46,615 bases of DNA from Deltaproteobacteria bacterium (GTDB taxonomy: Bacteria > Myxococcota_A > Polyangia > Nannocystales > Nannocystaceae), in assembly GCA_022601155.1 (NCBI GenBank), contig JAHZJA010000556.1, forward strand, positions 1 through 46,615. Reading direction: 5' to 3'. The position numbers and the translations under genes are program-made. Position 1 is the stretch's first letter. Each line of letters opens with the position of its first letter. This document shows positions 29,912 to 46,419 of the stretch, piece by piece. Below the pieces are notes generated by a model. The model worked only from the letters and a program-made list of their open reading frames with translations. It was not told the origin of the DNA and did not search any database.

Positions 29912-31870
29912 GTGAGCGGGAAGCTGCAGGGTCTTGCAATGGGTTGGGTACTCCTTCAGTGCGCATGTTACGCAGGAGGAGCGGACGTGGAGGTCGAGAT
30001 CGCCTCGACGGGTGCCGATGGAGAGTCCGAGGATGGGGCGACCGCGGATGGGGCGACCGCGGATGAGACGACCAGCGGGGCCGAGCCGAGCTGCGGCAAC
30101 GGAGTCGTCGAAGACGGCGAAGAGTGCGACGGCGACGACTCGCCGGCCGACAGCTGTGACGTGCTGGGCTTGGAGCCAGGCCCGCTGTCGTGCCGTTCGG
30201 ACTGCACCTACGACGTCACGCGGTGCGGCGCAGTGCCGGCTGCGCCGGTGATGCAGTTGAGGTTCGCGAGCATCAAGCGCTTCGAGTTCACATGGGACGC
30301 CGTACGCGGCGCAGACTACTACCGACTCGAGGAGAGTTTCGCTCCCGGAGAGCCGCTGGTGCAGCTGGGCGAGGACATCACCGGGTTGTCGGTCTCGTTC
30401 GAGATGCCGCTCCACGTGCGGTGGGGCGCGCGCTACCGGCTGCTGGCCTGCAACGCAGCCGGATGCACTTCATCGGAGCTGGCCGAGGTGACGGACTCGT
30501 TGGTCAGCGCGGTAGGCTACGTCAAGGCGTCCAACACCGAAGCGGGCGACGGGTTCGGCCACGAGGTCGCCATCAGCGAGGACGGCAATACGCTCGCGGT
30601 GGGTGCAGTCCGTGAGAGCAGCGGTAGCACGGGGTCCAACGGCGCCCAGGACGACAACTCGCTCGAGCACTCGGGGGCGGTCTACGTGTTCGTGCGAGAT
30701 GGCCTCGGCTCCTGGACGCAGCAAGCATACCTCAAGGCTTCGAATCCCGGAGCGTTCGACGAATTCGGCTACAGCGTGACCCTGAGCGACGACGGCAACA
30801 CGCTCGCTGTGGGCGCGAGATTCGACGTGCAAACGAATGGAACGGAGCGGGACGGAGCGGCCTACGTATTCGAGCGAGACGCGCTCGGCGCCTGGTCACA
30901 GAGCGCGTATCTCAAGGGAGAGAACACAGAAATTACCGACGAGTTCGGCGCCAACACGGCACTGAGTGGAGACGGCGATACGCTCATCGTGGCCGCCCAT
31001 CGACAGCTCGACGTCATGACCCTCAGTCGGGGCGTAGTCTACGTATTCGGTCGAGATGGCAACGGCGGCTGGGTACAACAACAGCGGCTCATGACGTCTC
31101 ACCAAGGGTTCTTTGGCTCGAGCGTGGCGGTCAGCGACGACGGCAACACGATTGCGGCAGGTGCGTTCGCCGAGGACAGCGGCGCGACGGGAGTTGGGGG
31201 CGATCAGAACGACACGTCGGCCGAAGCCTCGGGGGCGGCATACATCTACACCCGGGACGACGTAGGGGCGTGGTCCCAGCAGGCGTACATCAAGGCATCC
31301 AATACCGACGCCGGCGACTACTTCGGTTACGCGGTGGCGCTCAGCGGCGATGGTGAGATCCTTGCGGTCAGCGCCTCGCACGAGGGCAGCAATGCGACCG
31401 GAGTCGGGGGCAACCAGGACGACGACTCGGCTTCCGAGTCGGGGGCGGTCTACATCTACTCTCTCGGAGGCGCGTGGTCGCAGCAGGCGTACATCAAGGC
31501 CTCCAACACCGGCGCCGGCGACGAATTCGGCCACAACATCGCGATGAGCGACGACGGCCAGATGCTCGCTGTCGGGGCGCTGCTCGAAGGCGGAGGCGGA
31601 GTGGGCCACGGGGGCGACCAGACCGACGACTCGCTCTCCGCGACAGGAGCGGTCTACGTGTTCGAGAACAACGGACAATGGTCGCAGCGGAGCTACCTCA
31701 AGGCCCCCAACACCGACGAAGGCGACGCCTTCGGATTTACCTTGGCTCTGAGTGGAAGCGGGGAGACGCTCGTCGTCGGCACGCCCTCCGAGGACAGCAA
31801 CGCGACCGGTGTGGGCGGGGACCAGCTCGACAACTCCGTAGCAGGCGCCGGAGCCGTCTATCTGTACTGA
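29912..31870 (+). CDS. Secreted FG-GAP/integrin-like beta-propeller repeat protein with N-terminal Cys-rich module
   Basis: GTG start; repeated blocks of the form (Y)(V/L/I)KA(S/P)NT...(D/E)xFGxxxALSxDGxTLAVGA...GAVYVF; CGNGVVEDGEECDGDD Cys-rich module common in myxobacterial surface proteins. Confidence 0.85.
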   Translation: MSGKLQGLAMGWVLLQCACYAGGADVEVEIASTGADGESEDGATADGATADETTSGAEPSCGNGVVEDGEECDGDDSPADSCDVLGLEPGPLSCRSDCTYDVTRCGAVPAAPVMQLRFASIKRFEFTWDAVRGADYYRLEESFAPGEPLVQLGEDITGLSVSFEMPLHVRWGARYRLLACNAAGCTSSELAEVTDSLVSAVGYVKASNTEAGDGFGHEVAISEDGNTLAVGAVRESSGSTGSNGAQDDNSLEHSGAVYVFVRDGLGSWTQQAYLKASNPGAFDEFGYSVTLSDDGNTLAVGARFDVQTNGTERDGAAYVFERDALGAWSQSAYLKGENTEITDEFGANTALSGDGDTLIVAAHRQLDVMTLSRGVVYVFGRDGNGGWVQQQRLMTSHQGFFGSSVAVSDDGNTIAAGAFAEDSGATGVGGDQNDTSAEASGAAYIYTRDDVGAWSQQAYIKASNTDAGDYFGYAVALSGDGEILAVSASHEGSNATGVGGNQDDDSASESGAVYIYSLGGAWSQQAYIKASNTGAGDEFGHNIAMSDDGQMLAVGALLEGGGGVGHGGDQTDDSLSATGAVYVFENNGQWSQRSYLKAPNTDEGDAFGFTLALSGSGETLVVGTPSEDSNATGVGGDQLDNSVAGAGAVYLY

Positions 31871-33113: not shown

Positions 33114-33144
33114 GCGATCCCGACGCTTGCTATCCTCGGTGCGC

Positions 33145-34185
33145 ATGGGAAACCGACCGGGGATGGAGGGCGTCGCCAAGCCGCAGTGCTTCATCACCGG
33201 GACGGGGCGCTGCGGGTCGACGGTGCTCTCGCGCATGCTCATGCGGCACCCCGACGCGCTCGTGTTGCGCGAGTTCTTCTCGACGCTCGACGCGAGGCGC
33301 TTTGCGGCCGGGCCCGTCGACGCCCCAACCCTGGCGAGCATCCTGAGCGCCGACCGGCACCCCGTGCTCCCGTTCCTGCAGCGGGGCGGCACGATGCCGG
33401 AGATCCTCTACCGTCTCAGCGAGGCCCAGCGGCGCGAGCCCGGGCTGCAGGTCCCCGGCCTGCAGCTGGTCGCGCTGCCGTACCTGACCGACGATCCCGC
33501 GCGCCTGTACGCGGAGACGATCGAGTGGGCGCGGTCGCAGCCTTCCCGGCGACTCGCGGAGCACTACCCCGCGCTGTTCGGCTTCCTACGTGCGCAGACG
33601 GGCCGACGCGTGGCCATCGAGGCGTCGGCGACCAACAACGTCGACCTCGAGGTGTTCCCCTACTGTCGGGTGCTGCACGTGCATCGCTCGGGGCCGGAGG
33701 TCGTGCTCTCGATGGCCCAGCATCCGTTCTTTCGGCTGATGGCGGCGCTGGCCCTCGATCCGCTGACCGCCGAGCAGTGGGCAGTGGTGCGGGCGAGGTT
33801 GGCCCGTGACGAGGACGATCCCCTGGTCGCTCGCATGGCCGTGCGCCCGTCGCCGCGTCTCGATACCTTCCTCGCCCACACGTGGACGACCGCGGTCGCC
33901 CGCAACGTTCGCATGCTGGGTCGGCTACCCCGCGAGCACGTGCTCGAGCTGGCGTTCGAGGATCTGCTGGCCTCTCCGGAGGCGACCCTGCAGCGGGTGG
34001 CGGAGTTCTTCGGACTGTCGCCGGATCCCGTGTGGGCGCGAGACGTCGCGACGATGCTGCGCCCGGTCGAGCTGCGGTTGCCCGGGCTGGAGCCCGACCG
34101 ACAGCGGGAGCTCGCACGGCTGTGTGCAGTGGGGCAGATCCTCACCGGCCGTGAGCAACGCGAGCGCCTCGATCTGCTGGGTTAG
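33145..34185 (+). CDS. Sulfotransferase family protein
   Basis: N-terminal PAPS 5'-phosphosulfate loop-like ITGTGRCGSTVLSRMLMRHPD; VLHVHRSGPEVVLSMAQHP (3'-phosphate-binding-like RSG..VVLS); C-terminal ELAFEDLLASPEATLQRVAEFFGL. Confidence 0.88.
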   Translation: MGNRPGMEGVAKPQCFITGTGRCGSTVLSRMLMRHPDALVLREFFSTLDARRFAAGPVDAPTLASILSADRHPVLPFLQRGGTMPEILYRLSEAQRREPGLQVPGLQLVALPYLTDDPARLYAETIEWARSQPSRRLAEHYPALFGFLRAQTGRRVAIEASATNNVDLEVFPYCRVLHVHRSGPEVVLSMAQHPFFRLMAALALDPLTAEQWAVVRARLARDEDDPLVARMAVRPSPRLDTFLAHTWTTAVARNVRMLGRLPREHVLELAFEDLLASPEATLQRVAEFFGLSPDPVWARDVATMLRPVELRLPGLEPDRQRELARLCAVGQILTGREQRERLDLLG

Positions 34186-34191
34186 ACCCCG

Positions 34192-35385
34192 CTACCAGGG
34201 CTGACGCATCTGTGCCGCACGGTTGCGCTCGCGCAGGGCCTCCTCCCGCTGGGCGGCGCTGACCCACCGGGTGTCGGCGGGCATGTGGTCCCGCAGGGAG
34301 GCGAGGGCGACGACGCGCACGGTGGCCGTCGGGGCGCGCCTGCACCCATGCCAGCGGATGAGCAGCATGCCGTCGCGACGCCCGACGGTGTCCAGCCAGT
34401 GGGCGACGCCCGGATCGGCGGGGCTGACCACGGCCCTGAACTTGCCGTCGGCATCGGGACGCGCGGTGTGGCCGTTGAGGGTGGACTGGTGGTGGGTGTA
34501 GTCGAGGGTGCAGGCCAGGTCGTCGGCGAGGTGAACACACCAGTAGCGGCACCCGTCGGGGACGTCGGTCTCGAGCACCAGCGCGTGACCTTCGTCGAGC
34601 GCGAACAGCCCGCGGGTGTAGTGCAGGTGGGGCACGCGGCCGGGCTCGGTGACCGCCCGGGTGTCGACCCGGTTGATGAACCCCGCCTCGCGCCAGCGCT
34701 CCACGATGGGGTGCGCCAGCGACAGCTGCACGTGACTGTCGAGCCACGCGACGGAGCGGCAGAGGCGTTCGAACAGCTGGGGGGCGGTCGGCAGGGGAGG
34801 CCGAGCGGGACGATCGAGGCGCTCGATGGCGAGGCGAGCACTGATCTCCGTACGCCAGTCGTAGTGCCGCTGTCGCACCAGCACGTGGGTCGCCCCGGGA
34901 TCGAGGGCCCACCACGTGCCCTCGTACCCGGGAGGGCGGACGCGGGACAGGACGACCTCCACGCGACCGTCGCGGGTCGCCGGGAGGGCATCGAGGTCGT
35001 GCTCGGCCAGCCCGGGACCCATCGCGCCCGTCCCCAGGGGAACGAGCTGGCCGGAGCCGATCTCCACGCTGACGAAGTGCACTGTGCCCCGGTCTCCGCT
35101 GATGCGATACACCCCGTGCTCGTCGATCGGGGCGACCTGAATGCTGTCGTCGGCGTTCGGGAACTGGCCCCGGAACAGGCCGCTGAAGCGCACCGGGAGC
35201 TGGGGATACTCGGCGTCGTGATGCACGTGCGACAGGTAGCCGGCTCCGAGGTCGCGCAGCATCAGCTGGCACAGGCGGGCGCGGGCGAGGGCGTCGTCGG
35301 GATCGGGGAGTCGGGCGAGGGCATCGTTGCCGATGCGCTCGAGCTCCGACAGCAGCGCGGACCACTCGGTGCGGGGGCTGGTCAT
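34192..35385 (-). CDS. DUF1214-like protein of unknown function
   Basis: MTSPRTEWSALLSEL...; C-terminal YWCVHLADDLACTLDYTHHQSTLNGHTARPDADGKFRAVVSPADPGVAHWLDTVGRRDGMLLIRWHG. Start overlaps the P450 stop (ATGA-type). Confidence 0.7.
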   Translation of the reverse strand: MTSPRTEWSALLSELERIGNDALARLPDPDDALARARLCQLMLRDLGAGYLSHVHHDAEYPQLPVRFSGLFRGQFPNADDSIQVAPIDEHGVYRISGDRGTVHFVSVEIGSGQLVPLGTGAMGPGLAEHDLDALPATRDGRVEVVLSRVRPPGYEGTWWALDPGATHVLVRQRHYDWRTEISARLAIERLDRPARPPLPTAPQLFERLCRSVAWLDSHVQLSLAHPIVERWREAGFINRVDTRAVTEPGRVPHLHYTRGLFALDEGHALVLETDVPDGCRYWCVHLADDLACTLDYTHHQSTLNGHTARPDADGKFRAVVSPADPGVAHWLDTVGRRDGMLLIRWHGCRRAPTATVRVVALASLRDHMPADTRWVSAAQREEALRERNRAAQMRQPW

Positions 35386-36716
35386 GACGCCCGCACCAGA
35401 TGAGCCTCGGTCTGGGACGGGATCGCCTCGATGGCGGGGCCCAGGACCCGCGTGCCGGGCAGTCGGTCCATCTGTAGGCGTCGTCGGCTGCGGGTCGCAG
35501 CGCGGACGAGCGCCGCGACGAAGGTGCTGGCCTCGAGCCAGGTGAGCTGGTGTCCCGCACAGAAGTGAGCGCCGCCGCCGAAGCCGGCCGAGTCTACCGG
35601 GTCGCGCGGTCGACCCAAGTCGGCCCAGCGCCGGGGATCGAAGCGCATCGGGTCGCGGTAGCGCGAGGGATCGGTGAGCAGCGACGGCAGCGGCACGAGC
35701 AGGGTGGTCCCCGGCACGATGGGTCGTCCTGCCACGTGCAGACCCTCGCCCGCCCGCCGCGTCAGCCCGATCATGATCGGTCGCATGCGCATCGCCTCCC
35801 GCAGCAGCCCCGCGAGCAGGGGAAGCTCGGCGAGCGTGGCCGCGGTGCGGGGCAGCGCGTCCATACCGTCGACCTCCGCCGCGACCTCGTCCCACAGCCG
35901 ACGATCGGTGGCGAGGTAGGCGAGCATCCACGTGATGGCCTGCGCGCTGGTGTGCACGCCCGCGGCCAGCAGGTGGCGAAGGTTGTCGAGCAACTCCTCG
36001 TCGGTGAGGCCCTGCTCGGCATCCTGCTGCTCCTGCACCAGCCGGGACAGCAGATCCGTGGCGCCGGGCCGGGACCGGGCCTGCGCGATCCGAACCTCGA
36101 GCTGCGCGTCGATCCAACGCTTGGCCCGCTGCGCGAACCATCGCGGCGTGCCGATTCGCTCGCTGCTCAGCGGGAAGAAGCCCAGGGTGAAGCGCTGGTA
36201 GACCCGCTGCCATTCGGCTGCGTGCCCCGAGTCGATGCCCAGCAGGCCCAGCGCGACCGACATCGTGTACACCCGCGTCACCTCGCTCAGCCGTCCGCCG
36301 CCTCGGGTGAGCATCTGGTCGACGCCGCGGGCGGCGTGGGCATGGACCATCGGAGCCAGCTCCGCCAGCCGGGACAGGCCGCCGAGGAGCGGCCGACGCA
36401 CGCGTCGGTGCTCCTGGCCGTCGAGGGCGGAGATCACCCGGCGACCCAGCAGGTGGGCGTGCTTGCGCGCGAGCGATCGCTGCGCTCGCCGGTGGTCGGT
36501 GGTCATGATGAGGTCCCGGAAGGCCGCCTCGCCGTGGGCGACCAGCGTCCACGAGCTGAACCCCGGGTCCACCCAGAAGAGGTTGCCGTGGGCCTCGGCC
36601 CCGGCCTGGAAGAACCGCCAGGGGTCGCGGTTGATCGCGGGATAGTGACCGAGCACGGGCCAACGCCCCGTCGCGACGGGGAAGCCCTGGCGCCCGGGAT
36701 GAGGGGACGGGCTCAT
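35382..36716 (-). CDS. Cytochrome P450
   Basis: Heme-Cys motif FGGGAHFCAG, ExxR (EAMR), DPMRFDPRRW; I-helix LLAAGVHTSAQAITW. Confidence 0.95.
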   Translation of the reverse strand: MSPSPHPGRQGFPVATGRWPVLGHYPAINRDPWRFFQAGAEAHGNLFWVDPGFSSWTLVAHGEAAFRDLIMTTDHRRAQRSLARKHAHLLGRRVISALDGQEHRRVRRPLLGGLSRLAELAPMVHAHAARGVDQMLTRGGGRLSEVTRVYTMSVALGLLGIDSGHAAEWQRVYQRFTLGFFPLSSERIGTPRWFAQRAKRWIDAQLEVRIAQARSRPGATDLLSRLVQEQQDAEQGLTDEELLDNLRHLLAAGVHTSAQAITWMLAYLATDRRLWDEVAAEVDGMDALPRTAATLAELPLLAGLLREAMRMRPIMIGLTRRAGEGLHVAGRPIVPGTTLLVPLPSLLTDPSRYRDPMRFDPRRWADLGRPRDPVDSAGFGGGAHFCAGHQLTWLEASTFVAALVRAATRSRRRLQMDRLPGTRVLGPAIEAIPSQTEAHLVRAS

Positions 36717-37090
36717 CCTTCACCTCCGGTCAGGCCCAGGCCGAACACCACGAGCCCGAGGTGGAGGAACGTCATCCAGAACGAGACGGGCAGGCGGGCG
36801 ACCACGCGCTCCCGGTCGGCGACGATGTCGACCCCGGGGGCGAAGCTGGACCCGAGCAGGGCCAGGTCCATGAGCAACAGCAGAGATCCCGCGAACCAGG
36901 GGCGCCCCAGCGCGAGCAAGGCCAGGCCCATCAGGCCGAGGGCGCAGTTGAGCAGGCCGAAGCGGGCGCAGGTGTGGCGGGCGGCCGTCGGCCAGTACGA
37001 GCAGTAGACGTGGGTGCGGGTGAACTCGGCGGCGAGGCTGCCGAAGCTGGCGGCCAAGGCACAGACGGCGAGGATGATGAAGGCGGTCAT
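36713..37090 (-). CDS. Small multi-TM protein (paralogue of 39439..39831)
   Basis: MTAFIILAVCALAASFGSLAAEF...YWPTAARHTCARFGLLNC...; hydrophobic segments; overlaps P450 start. Confidence 0.75.
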   Translation of the reverse strand: MTAFIILAVCALAASFGSLAAEFTRTHVYCSYWPTAARHTCARFGLLNCALGLMGLALLALGRPWFAGSLLLLMDLALLGSSFAPGVDIVADRERVVARLPVSFWMTFLHLGLVVFGLGLTGGEG

Positions 37091-37108: not shown

Positions 37109-38080
37109 TCAGTAGCCGGCCTCGACGTCGACGCGACCGGGGGGCAGCTCGTGGTGTGCGAGCCGGTGCAGGGCTGCCCGCAGCTCGGCCTCGCGGGTGG
37201 CGGCGCTGCTGCGCACCAGGCCCGCGCGGTGGGGGCTCAGCACGACGTTGTCGAGCTGCCAAAAGGGGCGGTGTGCGGGCCAGGTGAGCGCGCGGTCCGT
37301 CGCCTCGTGCGGGAAGTCGTACCAGACGTCGAGCCCCGCGCCGCCGAGGCGGTGACGGAGCAGGGCGTCGTATAGCGCGTCTTCGTCGACGATCTGCGCC
37401 CGCGCGACGTTGACGAGCACGGCCCCTGGAGGTAGCCGGGCGAGGCGGTCGGCGTCGAGCAGCCCCGTGGTCTGCGGGGTCAGGGGCGCGCACACGAACA
37501 GGAGATCCGCGGCGGGCAGCAGATCGTCGAGCGCCCCCGCGGGGTGCAGCTCGATGCCTTCGACCACCTGCGGACGGTCGAGTCGGCGCTGCGTACCCCG
37601 AACCGTGACGCCCAGCGCCTGCAAGGCGGCACCGAGCCGCCGACCGACGTGTCCGCAGCCGACGATCAGGGCCGTGCGTTCGCCGAGCGTGGAGGCACAC
37701 GGCGTACCGAACCGCGGCCGCCAGTCGCCGCCCCGCAGCGCACGGTCCAGCGGGACCACGCGCCGGAGCACGCACAGCGCCAGAGTCAGCGCGAGCTCTG
37801 CGACCGCGGTGGCGTGGTGATGCACGTTGAACACCGGGAGCTCCGGGCGCGCGGCGAGGAGATGGCGGCGGGTGGGAGGCAGCAGTCCGGCGTAGGGCAG
37901 CAGCAAGGCGCGTAGACCCGGAGCGCCGAGCTGAGCCCGGGTCGGCTGTCCGGCGACCAGCACCTGGGTGTGCTGGTCCAGCGGACCGAGAGCCGCCCAC
38001 GGCGAGAGCTTCGCCGCCAGGCTCTCACGCGCCGACGCATCCAGGGTGTCGGCCACGTGGACGCGCAGTGGCGCGCTCAT
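37109..38080 (-). CDS. D-isomer specific 2-hydroxyacid dehydrogenase
   Basis: NAD-binding ALIVGCGHVGRRLGAALQALGVTV, LLFVCAPLTPQTTGLLDADRLARLPPGAVLVNVARAQIVDEDALYDAL, LDVW, SPHRAG. Start 38080 (MSAPLRVHVADTLD). Confidence 0.93.
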   Translation of the reverse strand: MSAPLRVHVADTLDASARESLAAKLSPWAALGPLDQHTQVLVAGQPTRAQLGAPGLRALLLPYAGLLPPTRRHLLAARPELPVFNVHHHATAVAELALTLALCVLRRVVPLDRALRGGDWRPRFGTPCASTLGERTALIVGCGHVGRRLGAALQALGVTVRGTQRRLDRPQVVEGIELHPAGALDDLLPAADLLFVCAPLTPQTTGLLDADRLARLPPGAVLVNVARAQIVDEDALYDALLRHRLGGAGLDVWYDFPHEATDRALTWPAHRPFWQLDNVVLSPHRAGLVRSSAATREAELRAALHRLAHHELPPGRVDVEAGY

Positions 38081-38754
38081 GCGATGCCTCCCGGGCACAC
38101 GGGGTTGTGCAGCTGGGTGGGGCAATCGTGACCGTAGTAGGCGTAGCGCAGACGGGCGATGCGCTCGAGCGCGGGACCTCCGGCGATGTAGCGGTGATTC
38201 CACTTGCGGGCGTGCTCCACGTGGGCCTGGCGGGCCGACTCGTGACGCCACGCGTGCGCGACGACCCACGCATCGCGATCGTGCGGACCGTCGGCGGCGA
38301 ACAACAGCCCGTTGCCGGACTCCCCGGCCAGCACGCCGCGCGTCTGCTCGATCGCCTCGCGGTACTGCGCCAGGGAGATCTTCGGCCACATGAACAGAGC
38401 CACGGTGGCCTCGCCGTCGAGCTCGATCCAGCGTCCGCGCGGGTGGGCGTGGACCAGCCCCGGGTAGGTCGCGGTGACCCCACAGCGGAACGCGAAGCTG
38501 GGCCCCTGCAGGTCGTAGCTGCGGGCGAGGTGTTGCCGCACTGCGGCACGACCCATGGCCCGATCGCGGTAGCGACGAAAGTGCACCACGTCCGACCACA
38601 GCTCGAACACCACGAGCTCGCCCTCGCGATGCCCCAGGCTGCGAAACCACAGCCCTGCGGGCTCGGTGTCACCGAAGCGCTCGATGGTGGCGGGGGCATC
38701 GTCGGGATCGATGCCCGGCCAGGAGGTGTAGATGAGCTGGGGCATGGGTCGCAA
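38077..38754 (-). CDS. Uncharacterised protein, paralogue of 38761..39432
   Basis: Shares GLWFRSLG, ELWSDVVHFR, GRWIELDG, AADGPHDRDAW with its neighbour. Confidence 0.8.
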   Translation of the reverse strand: MRPMPQLIYTSWPGIDPDDAPATIERFGDTEPAGLWFRSLGHREGELVVFELWSDVVHFRRYRDRAMGRAAVRQHLARSYDLQGPSFAFRCGVTATYPGLVHAHPRGRWIELDGEATVALFMWPKISLAQYREAIEQTRGVLAGESGNGLLFAADGPHDRDAWVVAHAWRHESARQAHVEHARKWNHRYIAGGPALERIARLRYAYYGHDCPTQLHNPVCPGGIA

Positions 38755-38760
38755 CGAGGG

Positions 38761-39432
38761 CTAGAGGAATCGACCGGCCCCGAACGGGTTTTCGCTCCCC
38801 GCGGGGCAACCGGGCACGAAGTAGGCGTGGTCGAGCCGCGACTCGAGCAGCAGGCTGGCCTTGTCGGGCTTGCGCAGGTCACCGAGCTGCCGGGCCACGG
38901 CCTCGCGCTCGTCCTCGCGGTCGGCCCAGCACCGCATCAGCAGCCACGCGCCCTCGTCGTAGGGCCCATCGGCGGCACACAGCACGCCCCGGCCTCCGGG
39001 TGCGTCGCCATGCAGGCCGTGCTTGTCGAGCCCCGACTCGTACTTGCTCACGCTGATCCCGGGATAGGCGGCGACGAGCACCCCGCCGCGGCCGTCGAGG
39101 GAAAGCCAGCGTCCCCGCCCGTCCTCGTCAGCCTCCCGCAGGTAGTGGCTGGTGGTCTCGTGGCGGACGCTGTGCCCCGGGCGTGCGACGCCGTGTTGGG
39201 CCTTGGCCTGCTTCACCGAGGCCCGGCTGCGCTCGGCCTCGTGTTGCTCGCGCCAGTGCAGATGATCGGACCACAGCTCGATCACCAGGGTGCCGCCGCC
39301 CGCCTCGGGACGCACGGCCCCGAGCGCGCGAAACCACAGTCCGGGGGCCTCGCTCATACCCAGTCGCTCGTACTGGGTGCGGAACCGACCGGGGGCCAGC
39401 GTGGGCCAGTGCTTGATGTTGACGAAGCTCAT
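38761..39432 (-). CDS. Uncharacterised protein, paralogue of 38077..38754
   Basis: GLWFRALG, ELWSDHLHWR, GRWLSLDG, AADGPYDEGAW. Confidence 0.8.
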   Translation of the reverse strand: MSFVNIKHWPTLAPGRFRTQYERLGMSEAPGLWFRALGAVRPEAGGGTLVIELWSDHLHWREQHEAERSRASVKQAKAQHGVARPGHSVRHETTSHYLREADEDGRGRWLSLDGRGGVLVAAYPGISVSKYESGLDKHGLHGDAPGGRGVLCAADGPYDEGAWLLMRCWADREDEREAVARQLGDLRKPDKASLLLESRLDHAYFVPGCPAGSENPFGAGRFL

Positions 39433-39438
39433 CGCGGG

Positions 39439-39831
39439 TCAGGGCTCCAGGGTGAGGGTGAGGCTGATGGCGACCAGGACGATCCCCAGGTGGGCGAGCA
39501 TCGGCCCTCGCACGGGGTCCGGCCCTCGCAGGTCGCGAATGCGGGGGACGACGTCGGCGCCGAGCTCGACGAGATCCACGACCGCGAGCACGGCCAGGGC
39601 GAACAGCAGGGTGGCGCGCTCGGGGGTCGGCAGCTGGGCGACGCACATGCCCGCCACGAGCACGCCCGCGCCGACGTGCGTGAGCCCGAGGGTGGTGGCA
39701 TGGAACCGGGCGTGGGCGGGCCACGTCGGATTGCCGGCCGCGTCCGCACCCAGCGGGGAGCGCAGGCCACCCACGACCAGGGCGACCGTGGCCAGCAGGG
39801 TGGTGACGACGACGATGGTGAGGATGGGCAT
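39439..39831 (-). CDS. Small multi-TM protein (paralogue of 36713..37090)
   Basis: MPILTIVVVTTLLATVALVVGGL...TWPAHARFHATTLGLTHVGAG...; hydrophobicity layout and WPxxAR(F/H) motif like the 36713 protein. Confidence 0.75.
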   Translation of the reverse strand: MPILTIVVVTTLLATVALVVGGLRSPLGADAAGNPTWPAHARFHATTLGLTHVGAGVLVAGMCVAQLPTPERATLLFALAVLAVVDLVELGADVVPRIRDLRGPDPVRGPMLAHLGIVLVAISLTLTLEP

Positions 39832-42929: not shown

Positions 42930-43778
42930 TCAGGTTCCAGCGACGAGGCGCTGCAGCGCGAGGGTGGTCAGGAAGGCCGCGAAGGCGACGACGACGGGGC
43001 CGAAGCCGACCGCGGTGGCGATGAGCAGGGCATCGACCAGCGCGATGCCGGCGATGAGGGAGATGACCCCCCGCCGGATCGACGCGGGCCGACGGCTCCG
43101 CACCAGACGCAGGGCACAGGTCACCCAGCCCGCGAAGCCGAGCAGCAGCCCGGCGCCGCTTGGGCCGGCGCCCAGCAGCGGGAGCGCGACGACGGCGGGT
43201 GCCCAGATGCCGAGCAGCGGGCCCACGCGGACGAGGCGACTGGAGCTCTCGTGCGCGGCCGCGTAGGTCAGGCCCAGCACGTACGCCACGAGGATCGCGG
43301 CGCCCAGCAGCACCGGGCCGCCCAGTCCCGGGGCGACCGCGAGCGCACCGCACAGGTACAGCCCGGCGCGGCACATCCCCATGAGCACGGGGGCGGCGGC
43401 GTTGCCCTTGTGGTGGCGGTCGTAGGCGATGATGCACGCGACCAGGCCCACGGCGGCCAGGCCCGGTCGCCATCCCATCGACCACGCGATGGCGAGGGCG
43501 GCCAGCACCATCACGACCGCCCAGCGGATCACCTCGCCCCGCTCGACCTCCCCCGAAGGGATCGGACGCTCGGGCCGCTCGCGGGCGTCGATCGAGGCGT
43601 CGAACACGTCGTTGAGAAACATCCCGGCCACGTACAGCAGCGAGCCCATCAGACCCAGCGGCACGATGACCCCCACCGTCGGGGTCCCGCCGGCCAGGAT
43701 GGCGCCGGCCAGGACGTTGCTCCACACCGTGGGCAGGTTGGAGATCCGGCCGAGCTTCATGGCGGTGGACATGTTCAT
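42930..43778 (-). CDS. eboC: EboC-like UbiA-family prenyltransferase
   Basis: KLGRISNLPTVWSNVLAGAIL, NDVFDASIDARERPERPIPSGEV (UbiA NDxxDxxxD), YDRHHKGN; multi-TM. Start MNMSTAMKL at 43778. Confidence 0.9.
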   Translation of the reverse strand: MNMSTAMKLGRISNLPTVWSNVLAGAILAGGTPTVGVIVPLGLMGSLLYVAGMFLNDVFDASIDARERPERPIPSGEVERGEVIRWAVVMVLAALAIAWSMGWRPGLAAVGLVACIIAYDRHHKGNAAAPVLMGMCRAGLYLCGALAVAPGLGGPVLLGAAILVAYVLGLTYAAAHESSSRLVRVGPLLGIWAPAVVALPLLGAGPSGAGLLLGFAGWVTCALRLVRSRRPASIRRGVISLIAGIALVDALLIATAVGFGPVVVAFAAFLTTLALQRLVAGT

Positions 43779-45010
43779 GCGACGCACTCCCGGGAGGCTC
43801 CGTGGGTGTGCCGCAGCAGGGCCGCGGCGGTGGTCAGCTCGCGCGCGATGGCGTCGGCCAAAGGCAGGGTGCGATGGCTCGGCGGCAGGACGCCCCAGGT
43901 GTAGGTCTCGACCTCGAAGTGTGGCGACAGGCCGCGCGCGTGCACCTGGGCCAGCAGCGGTGCCAGCGAGTCGGCGGTGGTCGACAGGGGGCCGGGCTCG
44001 TCGTGGAAGATCGGGACGTGGAAGTGGACCCGCCACGCGACCGGGCGGTGGTGCCCCTGCGCCCGCGAGCGGATCGCGTCGTCGAGGTCGAGGAAGCGGT
44101 GGAGGCGGCCGTGGTCGTCGCGGGCGACCACCTGGTGTAGGTACTGCCCGTCGTCGAACGGCTGCAGCCGGGCGACGGCCTCGTCGGTGACGGGGTCGAG
44201 CACCAACGCCGCCGTGATCTGGACCTTGGCCAGGCGTAGCCCCGCGGCTGCGATGCGATCGACGCAGGTCCGCGGGTCCTCGAACTCCACCGCGGCGTGG
44301 CAGGTGTCGAGGCACAGGCCCAGGTGTCGGCGGATGGCCGCCTCCGCGGTGACTCGGGTCGCACCGATGAGCGCCGCCATCCGCTCGAGCGCCTCCGGAC
44401 CGAGCAGCGTGCTCTCGAAGAACGCGACCGCCTCCTCGGTGGTCTCCAGCATGCAGTGGGGCTCGGGCTCGAGCGCCAGGGTGATCGCGCGGCCCGTGTC
44501 CTGCTCGCGTCGCCACAGATCGGCGGCGCAGCGCAGCAGCTGCTCACGCATCCGTAGCCGAGCCGCCGGGCGATCGATGTCGGGGCGGAACCCGCCCGGC
44601 ACCGTGCTCACCGAGCCGGCCATGGCGTCCGGGAGCAGGGCCCCGAGGATCTCGAACAGGTCTGCGCTGTAGGCCGCGCGGGCGGGCTCGCACCAGTCGG
44701 GGCGGTACACCGCCTGCTTGATGGCGTGCCCATGGAACGGTCCGTACGGAAAACCGTTGAGGGTGAAGACGTACAGGCCCCGCGCGTCCAGGGCGGAGCG
44801 CAGAGCGGGCAGCGCAGTGGGGCGCCCCAGCAGCTCGCGCGCGGCACGGGCCGACAGCCGCAGACCCACGCCCATGGGGGCGTCGGGGCTCACGCGAGCC
44901 TTGACCTGCGGGACCTGACGCTCGAGGGTCTGCAGCACCTCCGGCCAGGACTCGCCGGGGTGGATGTTGCTGCAGTAGGTCAGGTGGATGGGGTGTGGAT
45001 CGACGCGCAC
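43775..45010 (-). CDS. eboE: EboE-like sugar phosphate isomerase/epimerase (TIM barrel)
   Basis: HLTYCSNIHPGESWPEVLQTL, ARVSPDAPMGVGLRLSARAARELL, YVFTLNGFPYGPFHG, LALEPEPHCMLET, GLCLDTCHAAVEFEDP. Probable GTG start at 45010. Confidence 0.88.
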   Translation of the reverse strand: MRVDPHPIHLTYCSNIHPGESWPEVLQTLERQVPQVKARVSPDAPMGVGLRLSARAARELLGRPTALPALRSALDARGLYVFTLNGFPYGPFHGHAIKQAVYRPDWCEPARAAYSADLFEILGALLPDAMAGSVSTVPGGFRPDIDRPAARLRMREQLLRCAADLWRREQDTGRAITLALEPEPHCMLETTEEAVAFFESTLLGPEALERMAALIGATRVTAEAAIRRHLGLCLDTCHAAVEFEDPRTCVDRIAAAGLRLAKVQITAALVLDPVTDEAVARLQPFDDGQYLHQVVARDDHGRLHRFLDLDDAIRSRAQGHHRPVAWRVHFHVPIFHDEPGPLSTTADSLAPLLAQVHARGLSPHFEVETYTWGVLPPSHRTLPLADAIARELTTAAALLRHTHGASRECVA

Positions 45011-45015
45011 GGGCC

Positions 45016-46230
45016 CTACCTCCGTCGGCGCTCTCCGAGCGCGGTGATCACTGCGCTCACCGTGTCGCGATCGAGCTCGTGCACCTCGATACCCTTGCCG
45101 AGCGTCTCGAGCATGGTGACGGTGAGCGGGCCGCCCAGGTGCTCGCGAAACTCCTCGATCCCCGCCAGCACCGAGCGATCGCCCCGAGCGTCCTCGAGGT
45201 CGAGGGCCTCGTGCCACAGCGGCAGCCCGAGCTCGGCGAGCAGCGCTTCCACCCGGGTCGCGTCGACGGTAGGCAGGCCGGTGCGCAGGGCCGAGTACCC
45301 GCAGTCGATGGCGATCCCGATCCCGACCGCCTCGCCGTGCCGCAAGCTGTGCCCGCTGAGCACCTCGAGTCGGTGGGCAGCCCAGTGCCCGAAGTCGAGG
45401 GGACGGGCGCTCCCCGACTCGAACGGATCGCCGCCGTTGCGAATGTGGGCGAGGTGCAGCGCGGCGCCGCGCCGGATCATCGATTGCATGGCCTCGCGCT
45501 CGCCCTCGCGTAGGGCGGCTGCGTTGGCCTCCAGCTCCCCGAAGAACGCGTGATCACGGATGAGCGCCACCTTGACCGCCTCGGCGATCCCGGCGATCCG
45601 CTCGCGTCGGGACAGCGTGGAGATGAATTCGAGGTCGTTGATCACCGCGAACGGGGGCGAAAAGCAGCCCAGGGCGTTCTTGGTGCCGAACCGGTTGACC
45701 CCGTTCTTGACCCCGATGCCCGCGTCGTTCTGCGCGAGCACGGTGGTGGGGACCCGCACGATGCGGAGCCCGCGGTGGGTCACCGCCGCCGCGTACCCGA
45801 CCGCGTCGAGCACCGCACCGCCCCCGATGACGACGATGGTGGAGTGCCGGTCGAGTCGGGCCTCGAAGAACTCGCGCTGCAGCGCCGTGATCAGCCCCGG
45901 CTCGTTCTTGGCCGCCTCGCCGCCGGGGACGATCCGCAGGGGGCCGCCCCAGTCGAGGTGATGATGGTGGGCGGCACAGTAGCGGGCGACGCGATCCTCG
46001 AGGTCCGGCCAGGCCCGAGCGACGCCCGCGTCTACCACCACCCACAGTCGGTGCCGACGCTGGGGCTCCTGGCGGGCAATGGCCGAGACGAGGGTCTGGT
46101 CGTGGACCGCGAACATGTCGCGGGTGAAGGCGACCGGGTAGTCGAAGGCAACGCTGAAGCGCTGCTCGATCGCGGAGGGGGACTCGATCCTCGCGGGATC
46201 ACGGCTGACCAGCGCGGTGGCGTGCTGCAT
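45016..46230 (-). CDS. eboD: EboD-like 3-dehydroquinate synthase family sugar phosphate cyclase
   Basis: VVIGGGAVLDAVGYAAAVTHRGLRIVRVPTTVLAQNDAGIGVKNGVNRFGTKNALGCFSPPFAVINDLEFI; IAEAVKVALI; LDFGHWAAHRLEVLSGHSLRHGEAVGIGI. Start could instead be 46350. Confidence 0.9.
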   Translation of the reverse strand: MQHATALVSRDPARIESPSAIEQRFSVAFDYPVAFTRDMFAVHDQTLVSAIARQEPQRRHRLWVVVDAGVARAWPDLEDRVARYCAAHHHHLDWGGPLRIVPGGEAAKNEPGLITALQREFFEARLDRHSTIVVIGGGAVLDAVGYAAAVTHRGLRIVRVPTTVLAQNDAGIGVKNGVNRFGTKNALGCFSPPFAVINDLEFISTLSRRERIAGIAEAVKVALIRDHAFFGELEANAAALREGEREAMQSMIRRGAALHLAHIRNGGDPFESGSARPLDFGHWAAHRLEVLSGHSLRHGEAVGIGIAIDCGYSALRTGLPTVDATRVEALLAELGLPLWHEALDLEDARGDRSVLAGIEEFREHLGGPLTVTMLETLGKGIEVHELDRDTVSAVITALGERRRR

Positions 46231-46419
46231 GAGGGGCCTCGGGTCGATGGGGCGGACGGCTCCTCGTCGGCCGGGGCGGGCGACGAGAAGCTCGGTTCTG
46301 TTCCGGAGTGCCGACGTCGAGGGATTCCATTCACTCCTCGGTGACATCATCCGCGGTGTCGGGTGAAGCCGGACCGCGTCTGGGGTCTCGGGAGGTCGAC
46401 GTCGTGCTGGCTACTTGGT

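What the first reader, a model, noticed from the sequence alone, without database searches (positions are those of the whole stretch)
38077..39432. Tandem pair of uncharacterised paralogues with shared GLWFR.LG / ELWSD..H / GRW..LDG / AADGP.D..AW motifs
Adjacent proteins of about 220 aa share at least four collinear motifs and sit between the ebo core and the redox genes. I recognise no family for either. Retention of both copies suggests a heterodimer or two sequential reactions. Conserved Trp/His/Asp positions are compatible with an enzyme, possibly of dimeric alpha-beta barrel type.
Basis: partly seen in the sequence, partly recalled or inferred. Interest (0 to 1): 0.7.

Follow-up and report, generated by a model that had tools for sequence, protein, structure and literature searches.

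The report
Paralogue pair beside the ebo genes
Two neighbouring, clearly related soluble proteins of unknown function lie in the same gene run as a widespread metabolite gene cluster (ebo); each looks like a double copy of a small barrel-forming domain found in antibiotic-tailoring and heme-degrading enzymes, and no other copy of the pair was found, so they are probably accessory enzymes special to this lineage.

Summary
ORF A (38761-39432, minus, 223 aa) and ORF B (38077-38754, minus, 225 aa) are real tandem paralogues: 32% identity over full length, E 4e-31. They sit in a tightly packed run of genes from eboD (46350) to a DUF1214 gene (34192). The order D-E-C-A-B-F is a known ebo arrangement.

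Each protein appears to be two ABM-like (antibiotic biosynthesis monooxygenase, PF03992) repeats fused in tandem, which would make one ferredoxin alpha+beta barrel per chain. Evidence: a sub-threshold Pfam ABM hit for B (E 1.8e-4); a home-made ABM profile that finds both halves of both proteins in register; N-half/C-half similarity beyond shuffles. A poor model of B (pLDDT 40) still ranks ABM structures first; the model of A (pLDDT 39) gives only unspecific ferredoxin-like matches.

No relative of A or B was found in 29 order genomes, 317 class genomes, phylum samples, or about 60 loci around other eboF genes. Most likely they are lineage-specific accessory enzymes of the ebo-linked pathway. 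Heterodimer, heme and reaction remain untested; the IsdG heme triad and the SnoaB/ActVA-Orf6 Asn are not conserved.

The parts
38761..39432 (-). ORF A, 223 aa, soluble, first of the tandem paralogues
38077..38754 (-). ORF B, 225 aa (TTG start, or ATG at 38745), soluble, second paralogue; 6-nt gap after A, stop overlaps the next gene's ATG (ATGA)
39115..39432 (-). A, repeat 1 (ABM-like half with GLWFRALG and ELWSDHLH)
38764..39114 (-). A, repeat 2 (GRWLSLDG, AADGPYDEGAW); no Pfam hit of its own
38440..38754 (-). B, repeat 1 (GLWFRSLG; ELWSD at 38590-38604)
38080..38439 (-). B, repeat 2 (GRWIELDG, AADGPHDRDAW, W169); Pfam ABM match at residues 128-181
45016..46350 (-). eboD (sugar phosphate cyclase / 3-dehydroquinate-synthase-like), first gene of the run
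43775..45010 (-). eboE (TIM barrel); start approximate
   Evidence: NF035939, 446 bits
42930..43778 (-). eboC (UbiA prenyltransferase)
   Evidence: PF01040
42164..42907 (-). eboA
   Evidence: NF035938, 138 bits
41265..42167 (-). eboB (TatD-like hydrolase)
   Evidence: PF01026
39852..41261 (-). eboF (type I phosphodiesterase)
   Evidence: PF01663
39439..39831 (-). small membrane protein (about 130 aa) between eboF and A
   Evidence: no family over cut-off; hydropathy
37109..38080 (-). D-2-hydroxyacid dehydrogenase (NAD-binding), downstream of B
   Evidence: PF02826, 1.2e-42
36713..37090 (-). second small membrane protein (weak DUF6640)
35382..36716 (-). cytochrome P450
   Evidence: PF00067, 5.5e-42
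34192..35385 (-). DUF1214 protein, last gene of the run
   Evidence: PF06742, 2.5e-6, over cut-off

Best explanation
A and B are products of a gene duplication. Each chain is itself an older fusion of two ABM-like ferredoxin domains, which would fold into one dimeric-type alpha+beta barrel per chain. They are soluble cytoplasmic enzymes, or substrate-binding partners, of an accessory cassette (membrane protein, A, B, hydroxyacid dehydrogenase, membrane protein, P450, DUF1214) added downstream of a DECABF ebo cluster. They probably act on the small, likely prenylated or cyclitol-derived, metabolite that the ebo genes make or move. The most likely chemistry is what this superfamily does without a bound cofactor: oxygenation, isomerisation or cyclisation in the barrel cavity. 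Shown: paralogy, gene run, weak but repeated ABM similarity, N-half/C-half similarity, absence from other eboF loci. Inferred: the fold of A, enzymatic activity, substrate, and any A-B complex.
For: Paralogy E 4e-31. Pfam ABM in B at E 1.8e-4 (22.0 bits, cut-off 23.1). A profile built from 30 ABM sequences of order genomes finds both halves of both proteins, with their Trp-containing strand (ELWSD, HAWRH, RCWAD) on the ABM 'evWrd' strand. Profile-profile: C-half against ABM beats 400 of 400 column shuffles, N-half 397 of 400; none of 276 unrelated fragments from these genomes reaches either score; N-half against C-half beats 400 of 400. Foldseek of the B model: the first 16 PDB rows are ABM-superfamily entries, including the two-domain 3mcs and LsrG, MhuD and IsdG-type proteins. 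Tight gene packing implies co-expression: overlaps or gaps of at most about 20 nt from eboF to DUF1214. Tandem-fused and hetero-paired barrels are known in this superfamily (PMC4835899). No TM segment or hydrophobic leader in A or B.
Against: Both models are poor (pLDDT 40 and 39). The Foldseek hits for A are CutA/PII-type ferredoxin-like proteins at E 0.5 or worse, not ABM. VIA-align scores for B are at most 5.7, and ABM entries mix with other ferredoxin-like folds. No family reaches its curated cut-off. Profiles of A+B find nothing in PDB sequences. None of the known catalytic residue sets of the superfamily is conserved apart from the Trp. There is no direct evidence of activity, or of a link to the ebo product beyond position.
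Confidence: 0.6

Rival explanations
1. A and B bind heme or a related tetrapyrrole, as Cld/HemQ, OxdA or the IsdG family do, and act as heme-dependent enzymes.
For: The superfamily includes tandem-fused heme barrels (HmoB, Cld, OxdA; PMC4835899); MhuD, IsdG and HmoB appear among the Foldseek rows for B; an invariant His follows ELWSD in repeat 1 of both proteins.
Against: The IsdG triad Asn/Trp/His (Trp-His spacing 9-10; PMC6018153) is not kept: only the Trp is invariant. A has no His in the second helix of repeat 2, where B has one. The invariant His lies 5 residues after the Trp.
Confidence: 0.15
2. A and B are non-catalytic: a paired metabolite-binding or scaffold module serving the traffic role proposed for ebo genes in Nostoc.
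For: Ebo genes are implicated in export of a scytonemin precursor (PMC6282210); A and B lack known catalytic sets; two small membrane proteins lie in the same run.
Against: Neighbours in the run are oxidoreductases (P450, dehydrogenase), which suggests tailoring chemistry; conserved acidic, His and Arg residues sit around the predicted strands.
Confidence: 0.2
3. A and B have another ferredoxin-like fold (CutA/PII type or other), and the ABM similarity is only topological.
For: Foldseek of the A model gives CutA/PII entries; VIA-align rows for B mix several ferredoxin-like families.
Against: Sequence evidence is specific to ABM: Pfam E 1.8e-4 and in-register matches of both halves. Those models have pLDDT under 41.
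Confidence: 0.2
4. The pair is an orphan, decaying or neutral duplication in one lineage, with no role in the pathway.
For: No relative found anywhere searched.
Against: Two intact full-length frames at 32% identity with coding-type GC3 and shared motifs imply long selection; tight packing inside an operon-like run.
Confidence: 0.07

Closest known systems
ABM family (PF03992), cofactor-free monooxygenases such as SnoaB, ActVA-Orf6 and RslO4
   Same: Order of strands and helices as far as predicted; G at the start of strand 2 and Trp at the end of strand 3 in each repeat; natural-product gene context
   Different: These members have one domain per chain; A and B have two. The Asn four residues before the Trp (Asn62/Trp66 in ActVA-Orf6, Asn63/Trp67 in SnoaB; PMC8093152) is Val or another non-Asn residue in A and B. 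Below Pfam's cut-off
Tandem-fused ferredoxin alpha+beta barrels (HmoB, Cld/HemQ, OxdA; also PDB 3mcs, annotated only as putative monooxygenase)
   Same: Two fused ferredoxin-like domains on one chain (about 218 aa in 3mcs) that can close a barrel
   Different: No detectable sequence similarity in PDB searches; heme ligands not conserved
Ebo cluster of DECABF type (PMC5133447)
   Same: All six ebo genes in the published order D-E-C-A-B-F directly upstream
   Different: The downstream cassette with A and B is not in any of about 60 other eboF loci examined

Membership tests
ABM (PF03992) | Score over the curated Pfam cut-off | tested here: not met
   B 22.0 bits against 23.1; A no hit
ABM (PF03992) | Ferredoxin-like domain with ABM signature strand ending in Trp | tested here: inconclusive
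   In-register profile matches in both halves of both proteins, significant against shuffles for the two-sequence profiles; models too poor to confirm
Ferredoxin (dimeric) alpha+beta barrel superfamily, tandem-fused type | Two ferredoxin-like domains per chain packed into one barrel | tested here: inconclusive
   N-half/C-half similarity beats 400/400 shuffles; predicted beta-alpha-beta-beta-alpha-beta in the second half of B; barrel packing not resolved at pLDDT 40
IsdG-type heme oxygenases | Asn/Trp/His catalytic triad | tested here: not met
   Only the Trp is shared by A and B (triad from PMC6018153)
Cofactor-free anthrone oxygenases (ActVA-Orf6/SnoaB) | Asn four residues before the conserved Trp | tested here: not met
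   No Asn at this position in any of the four repeats (residues from PMC8093152); depends on placing their Trp on the same strand
Heme-binding barrels in general | Bound heme | not testable with these tools
   Needs purified protein
Ebo cluster core genes (eboA-F) | Conserved with ebo genes across taxa | tested here: not met
   No A/B relative in five loci of the same family and 56 further eboF loci of the phylum

The most novel reading that the evidence does not exclude
A and B form an obligate heteromeric enzyme of four ABM-like domains, a so far undescribed family, that carries out a new tailoring step on an ebo-pathway product. It would give a chemical handle on what the ebo genes make in this lineage.
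Probability: 0.2. Interest if true: 0.6.

Novelty: new member of a known kind. Interest (0 to 1): 0.35.

Why it matters
The product of ebo genes outside cyanobacteria is unknown. An accessory cassette with recognisable redox enzymes and two barrel-type proteins fused to an intact DECABF cluster is a place where the product might be identified by deletion and metabolomics. The pair itself adds a divergent branch, with tandem-fused and then duplicated domains, to a superfamily whose catalytic residues vary widely.

Tried and rejected
Relatives by peptide patterns in genome contigs (84,980 species): none confirmed; patterns are exact 8-mers, so divergent relatives can be missed. Viral contigs and plasmids: none. 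Weak hits in G026, G228, G302 and G533 (E 6e-4 to 6e-3) cover short fragments, in frames far longer than A or B or with a stop inside; rejected as chance. PDB sequence searches with single proteins gave only chance hits (cathepsin S, TSG101); with profiles nothing. PHROGs: nothing. NIPSNAP: B scores 10.4 bits, E 0.75; the genome search for NIPSNAP rang nowhere, not even in controls, so it says nothing. The dehydrogenase has 46-47% relatives in five genomes of the phylum outside the class, but no A/B-like gene lies near them. The 609-aa + strand ORF was rejected as a shadow. The idea that identities cluster in motifs more than chance is only weakly supported (p 0.09), so it is not used. In VIA-align families not listed are not excluded.

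Full report
What is there. The window is a whole contig (C1179) of a 10.8 Mb, 72% complete genome. On the minus strand runs a tight series of genes: eboD (46350-45016), eboE, eboC, eboA, eboB, eboF, a small membrane protein, A, B, a D-2-hydroxyacid dehydrogenase, a second small membrane protein, a P450 and a DUF1214 protein. From eboF on, neighbours overlap by a few bases or lie at most about 20 bases apart; B's stop codon overlaps the dehydrogenase start (ATGA). The order D-E-C-A-B-F is one of the published ebo arrangements (PMC5133447).

Checking the observation. A and B match at 32% identity over 215 columns, E 4e-31; the shuffled control puts the score 39 standard deviations out. The four named motifs are real and collinear. 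Coding evidence: third-position GC of 0.87-0.89, and the highest paralogue similarity of all six frames lies in the annotated frame. Both proteins are soluble by hydropathy.

What fold. Pfam's ABM model hits B at residues 128-181 with E 1.8e-4, just under its cut-off; A has no hit. I built an ABM profile from 30 sequences found in the genomes of the same order. In HMMER's most sensitive mode it matches both halves of B and both halves of A, each time laying the Trp-bearing strand (ELWSD in repeat 1, HAWRH/RCWAD in repeat 2) on the ABM 'evWrd' strand; the scores are individually weak (E 0.004 for B and 0.03 for A, in a search of two sequences). In profile-profile comparison the C-half of the pair scores 23.2 against ABM (best of 400 shuffles 21.2), the N-half 18.0 (3 of 400 shuffles reach it), and none of 276 unrelated gene fragments reaches 18.0; the two halves score 24.6 against each other (best of 400 shuffles 19.5). 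Single sequences of A alone are within the noise (12.7 and 13.3), so the claim for A leans on its homology to B. Five residues are invariant in all four repeats, among them a Gly at the start of strand 2 and the Trp at the end of strand 3.

Structure prediction was limited to two-sequence alignments. The model of B has pLDDT 40, yet its first 16 Foldseek rows in PDB are all ABM-superfamily entries (best E 0.03), two of them from 3mcs, a chain of about 218 residues that I take to be two-domain from its length. VIA-align on the same model puts the C-half on ferredoxin-like folds with Z up to 5.7, ABM entries mixed with others. The model of A (pLDDT 39) gives CutA/PII-type matches at E 0.5 or worse, so it supports at most a ferredoxin-like topology. 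Low-confidence models can mislead; I count them as minor support.

Distribution. The A+B profile finds nothing convincing but A and B in 29 genomes of the order, including a 94%-complete genome of the same genus, in 317 of the class and in 329 sampled from the phylum; in the two larger sets only the best eight or nine candidates per genome were scored. Six of 29 order genomes carry eboE. I fetched five ebo loci of the same family and 56 further loci around eboF in the class and phylum; neither A, B nor any other gene of the downstream cassette was found in them, although several of these loci are cut short by contig ends. The pair is therefore an accessory of this lineage's cluster, not part of the ebo core. 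Public collections searched by peptide patterns gave nothing either, with limited sensitivity.

How it may work. In this superfamily the barrel is made by two ferredoxin-like domains, either from two chains (identical or paralogous) or fused in one (PMC4835899). A and B would be of the fused kind, so a heterodimer is possible but not required to close a barrel. The conserved Trp corresponds to the Trp that ruffles heme in IsdG (PMC6018153), judged by its distance from the His of the ABM consensus; if, as I assume, the ActVA-Orf6/SnoaB/RslO4 Trp lies on the same strand, it also corresponds to the Trp that orients aromatic substrates there (PMC8093152). The other catalytic residues of those enzymes are missing, so the reaction cannot be read from sequence. 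The genomic setting (prenyltransferase eboC, P450, hydroxyacid dehydrogenase) favours tailoring of a small molecule. UbiA-like prenyltransferases of a conserved operon in marine Flavobacteria farnesylate quinoline acids (PMC9235831), and ebo genes in Nostoc are implicated in moving a precursor to the periplasm (PMC6282210). Whether either applies here is unknown.

Verdict. Observation confirmed; the fold guess probably right and refined to two domains per chain; heterodimer and activity open. Ordinary in kind (a divergent branch of a known superfamily), moderately interesting for its place.

Noticed in passing
L015, L016, L019 (related genomes): In three genomes of the same family the ebo cluster is split into D-E-C and A-B-F halves in opposite orientation, with a gap of about 5 kb in L015 and L016 and almost none in L019; the window and L017 keep one contiguous D-E-C-A-B-F.
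   Followed up: partly
G298 (same genus): The 94%-complete genome of the same genus has no eboE or eboF match, so the cluster is patchy within the genus.
   Followed up: partly
window 29912-31870 (+): A 652-aa protein with repeats of the type 'YLKASNTDAGDEFGHxVALSxDGxTLAVGA', FG-GAP-like by eye.
   Followed up: no
window 33127-34185 (+): A sulfotransferase gene (PF13469, 7.8e-16) converges with the end of the ebo-linked run; it could belong to the same pathway.
   Followed up: no
window 36713-37090 and 39439-39831 (-): Two small multi-pass membrane proteins without an assigned family flank the A/B and dehydrogenase genes; they show no significant similarity to each other.
   Followed up: partly
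L166-L170: Relatives (46-47%) of the window's hydroxyacid dehydrogenase occur in five genomes of the phylum outside the class without the cassette; in L169 and L170 the gene lies next to what looks by eye like a Sir2-type gene.
   Followed up: partly
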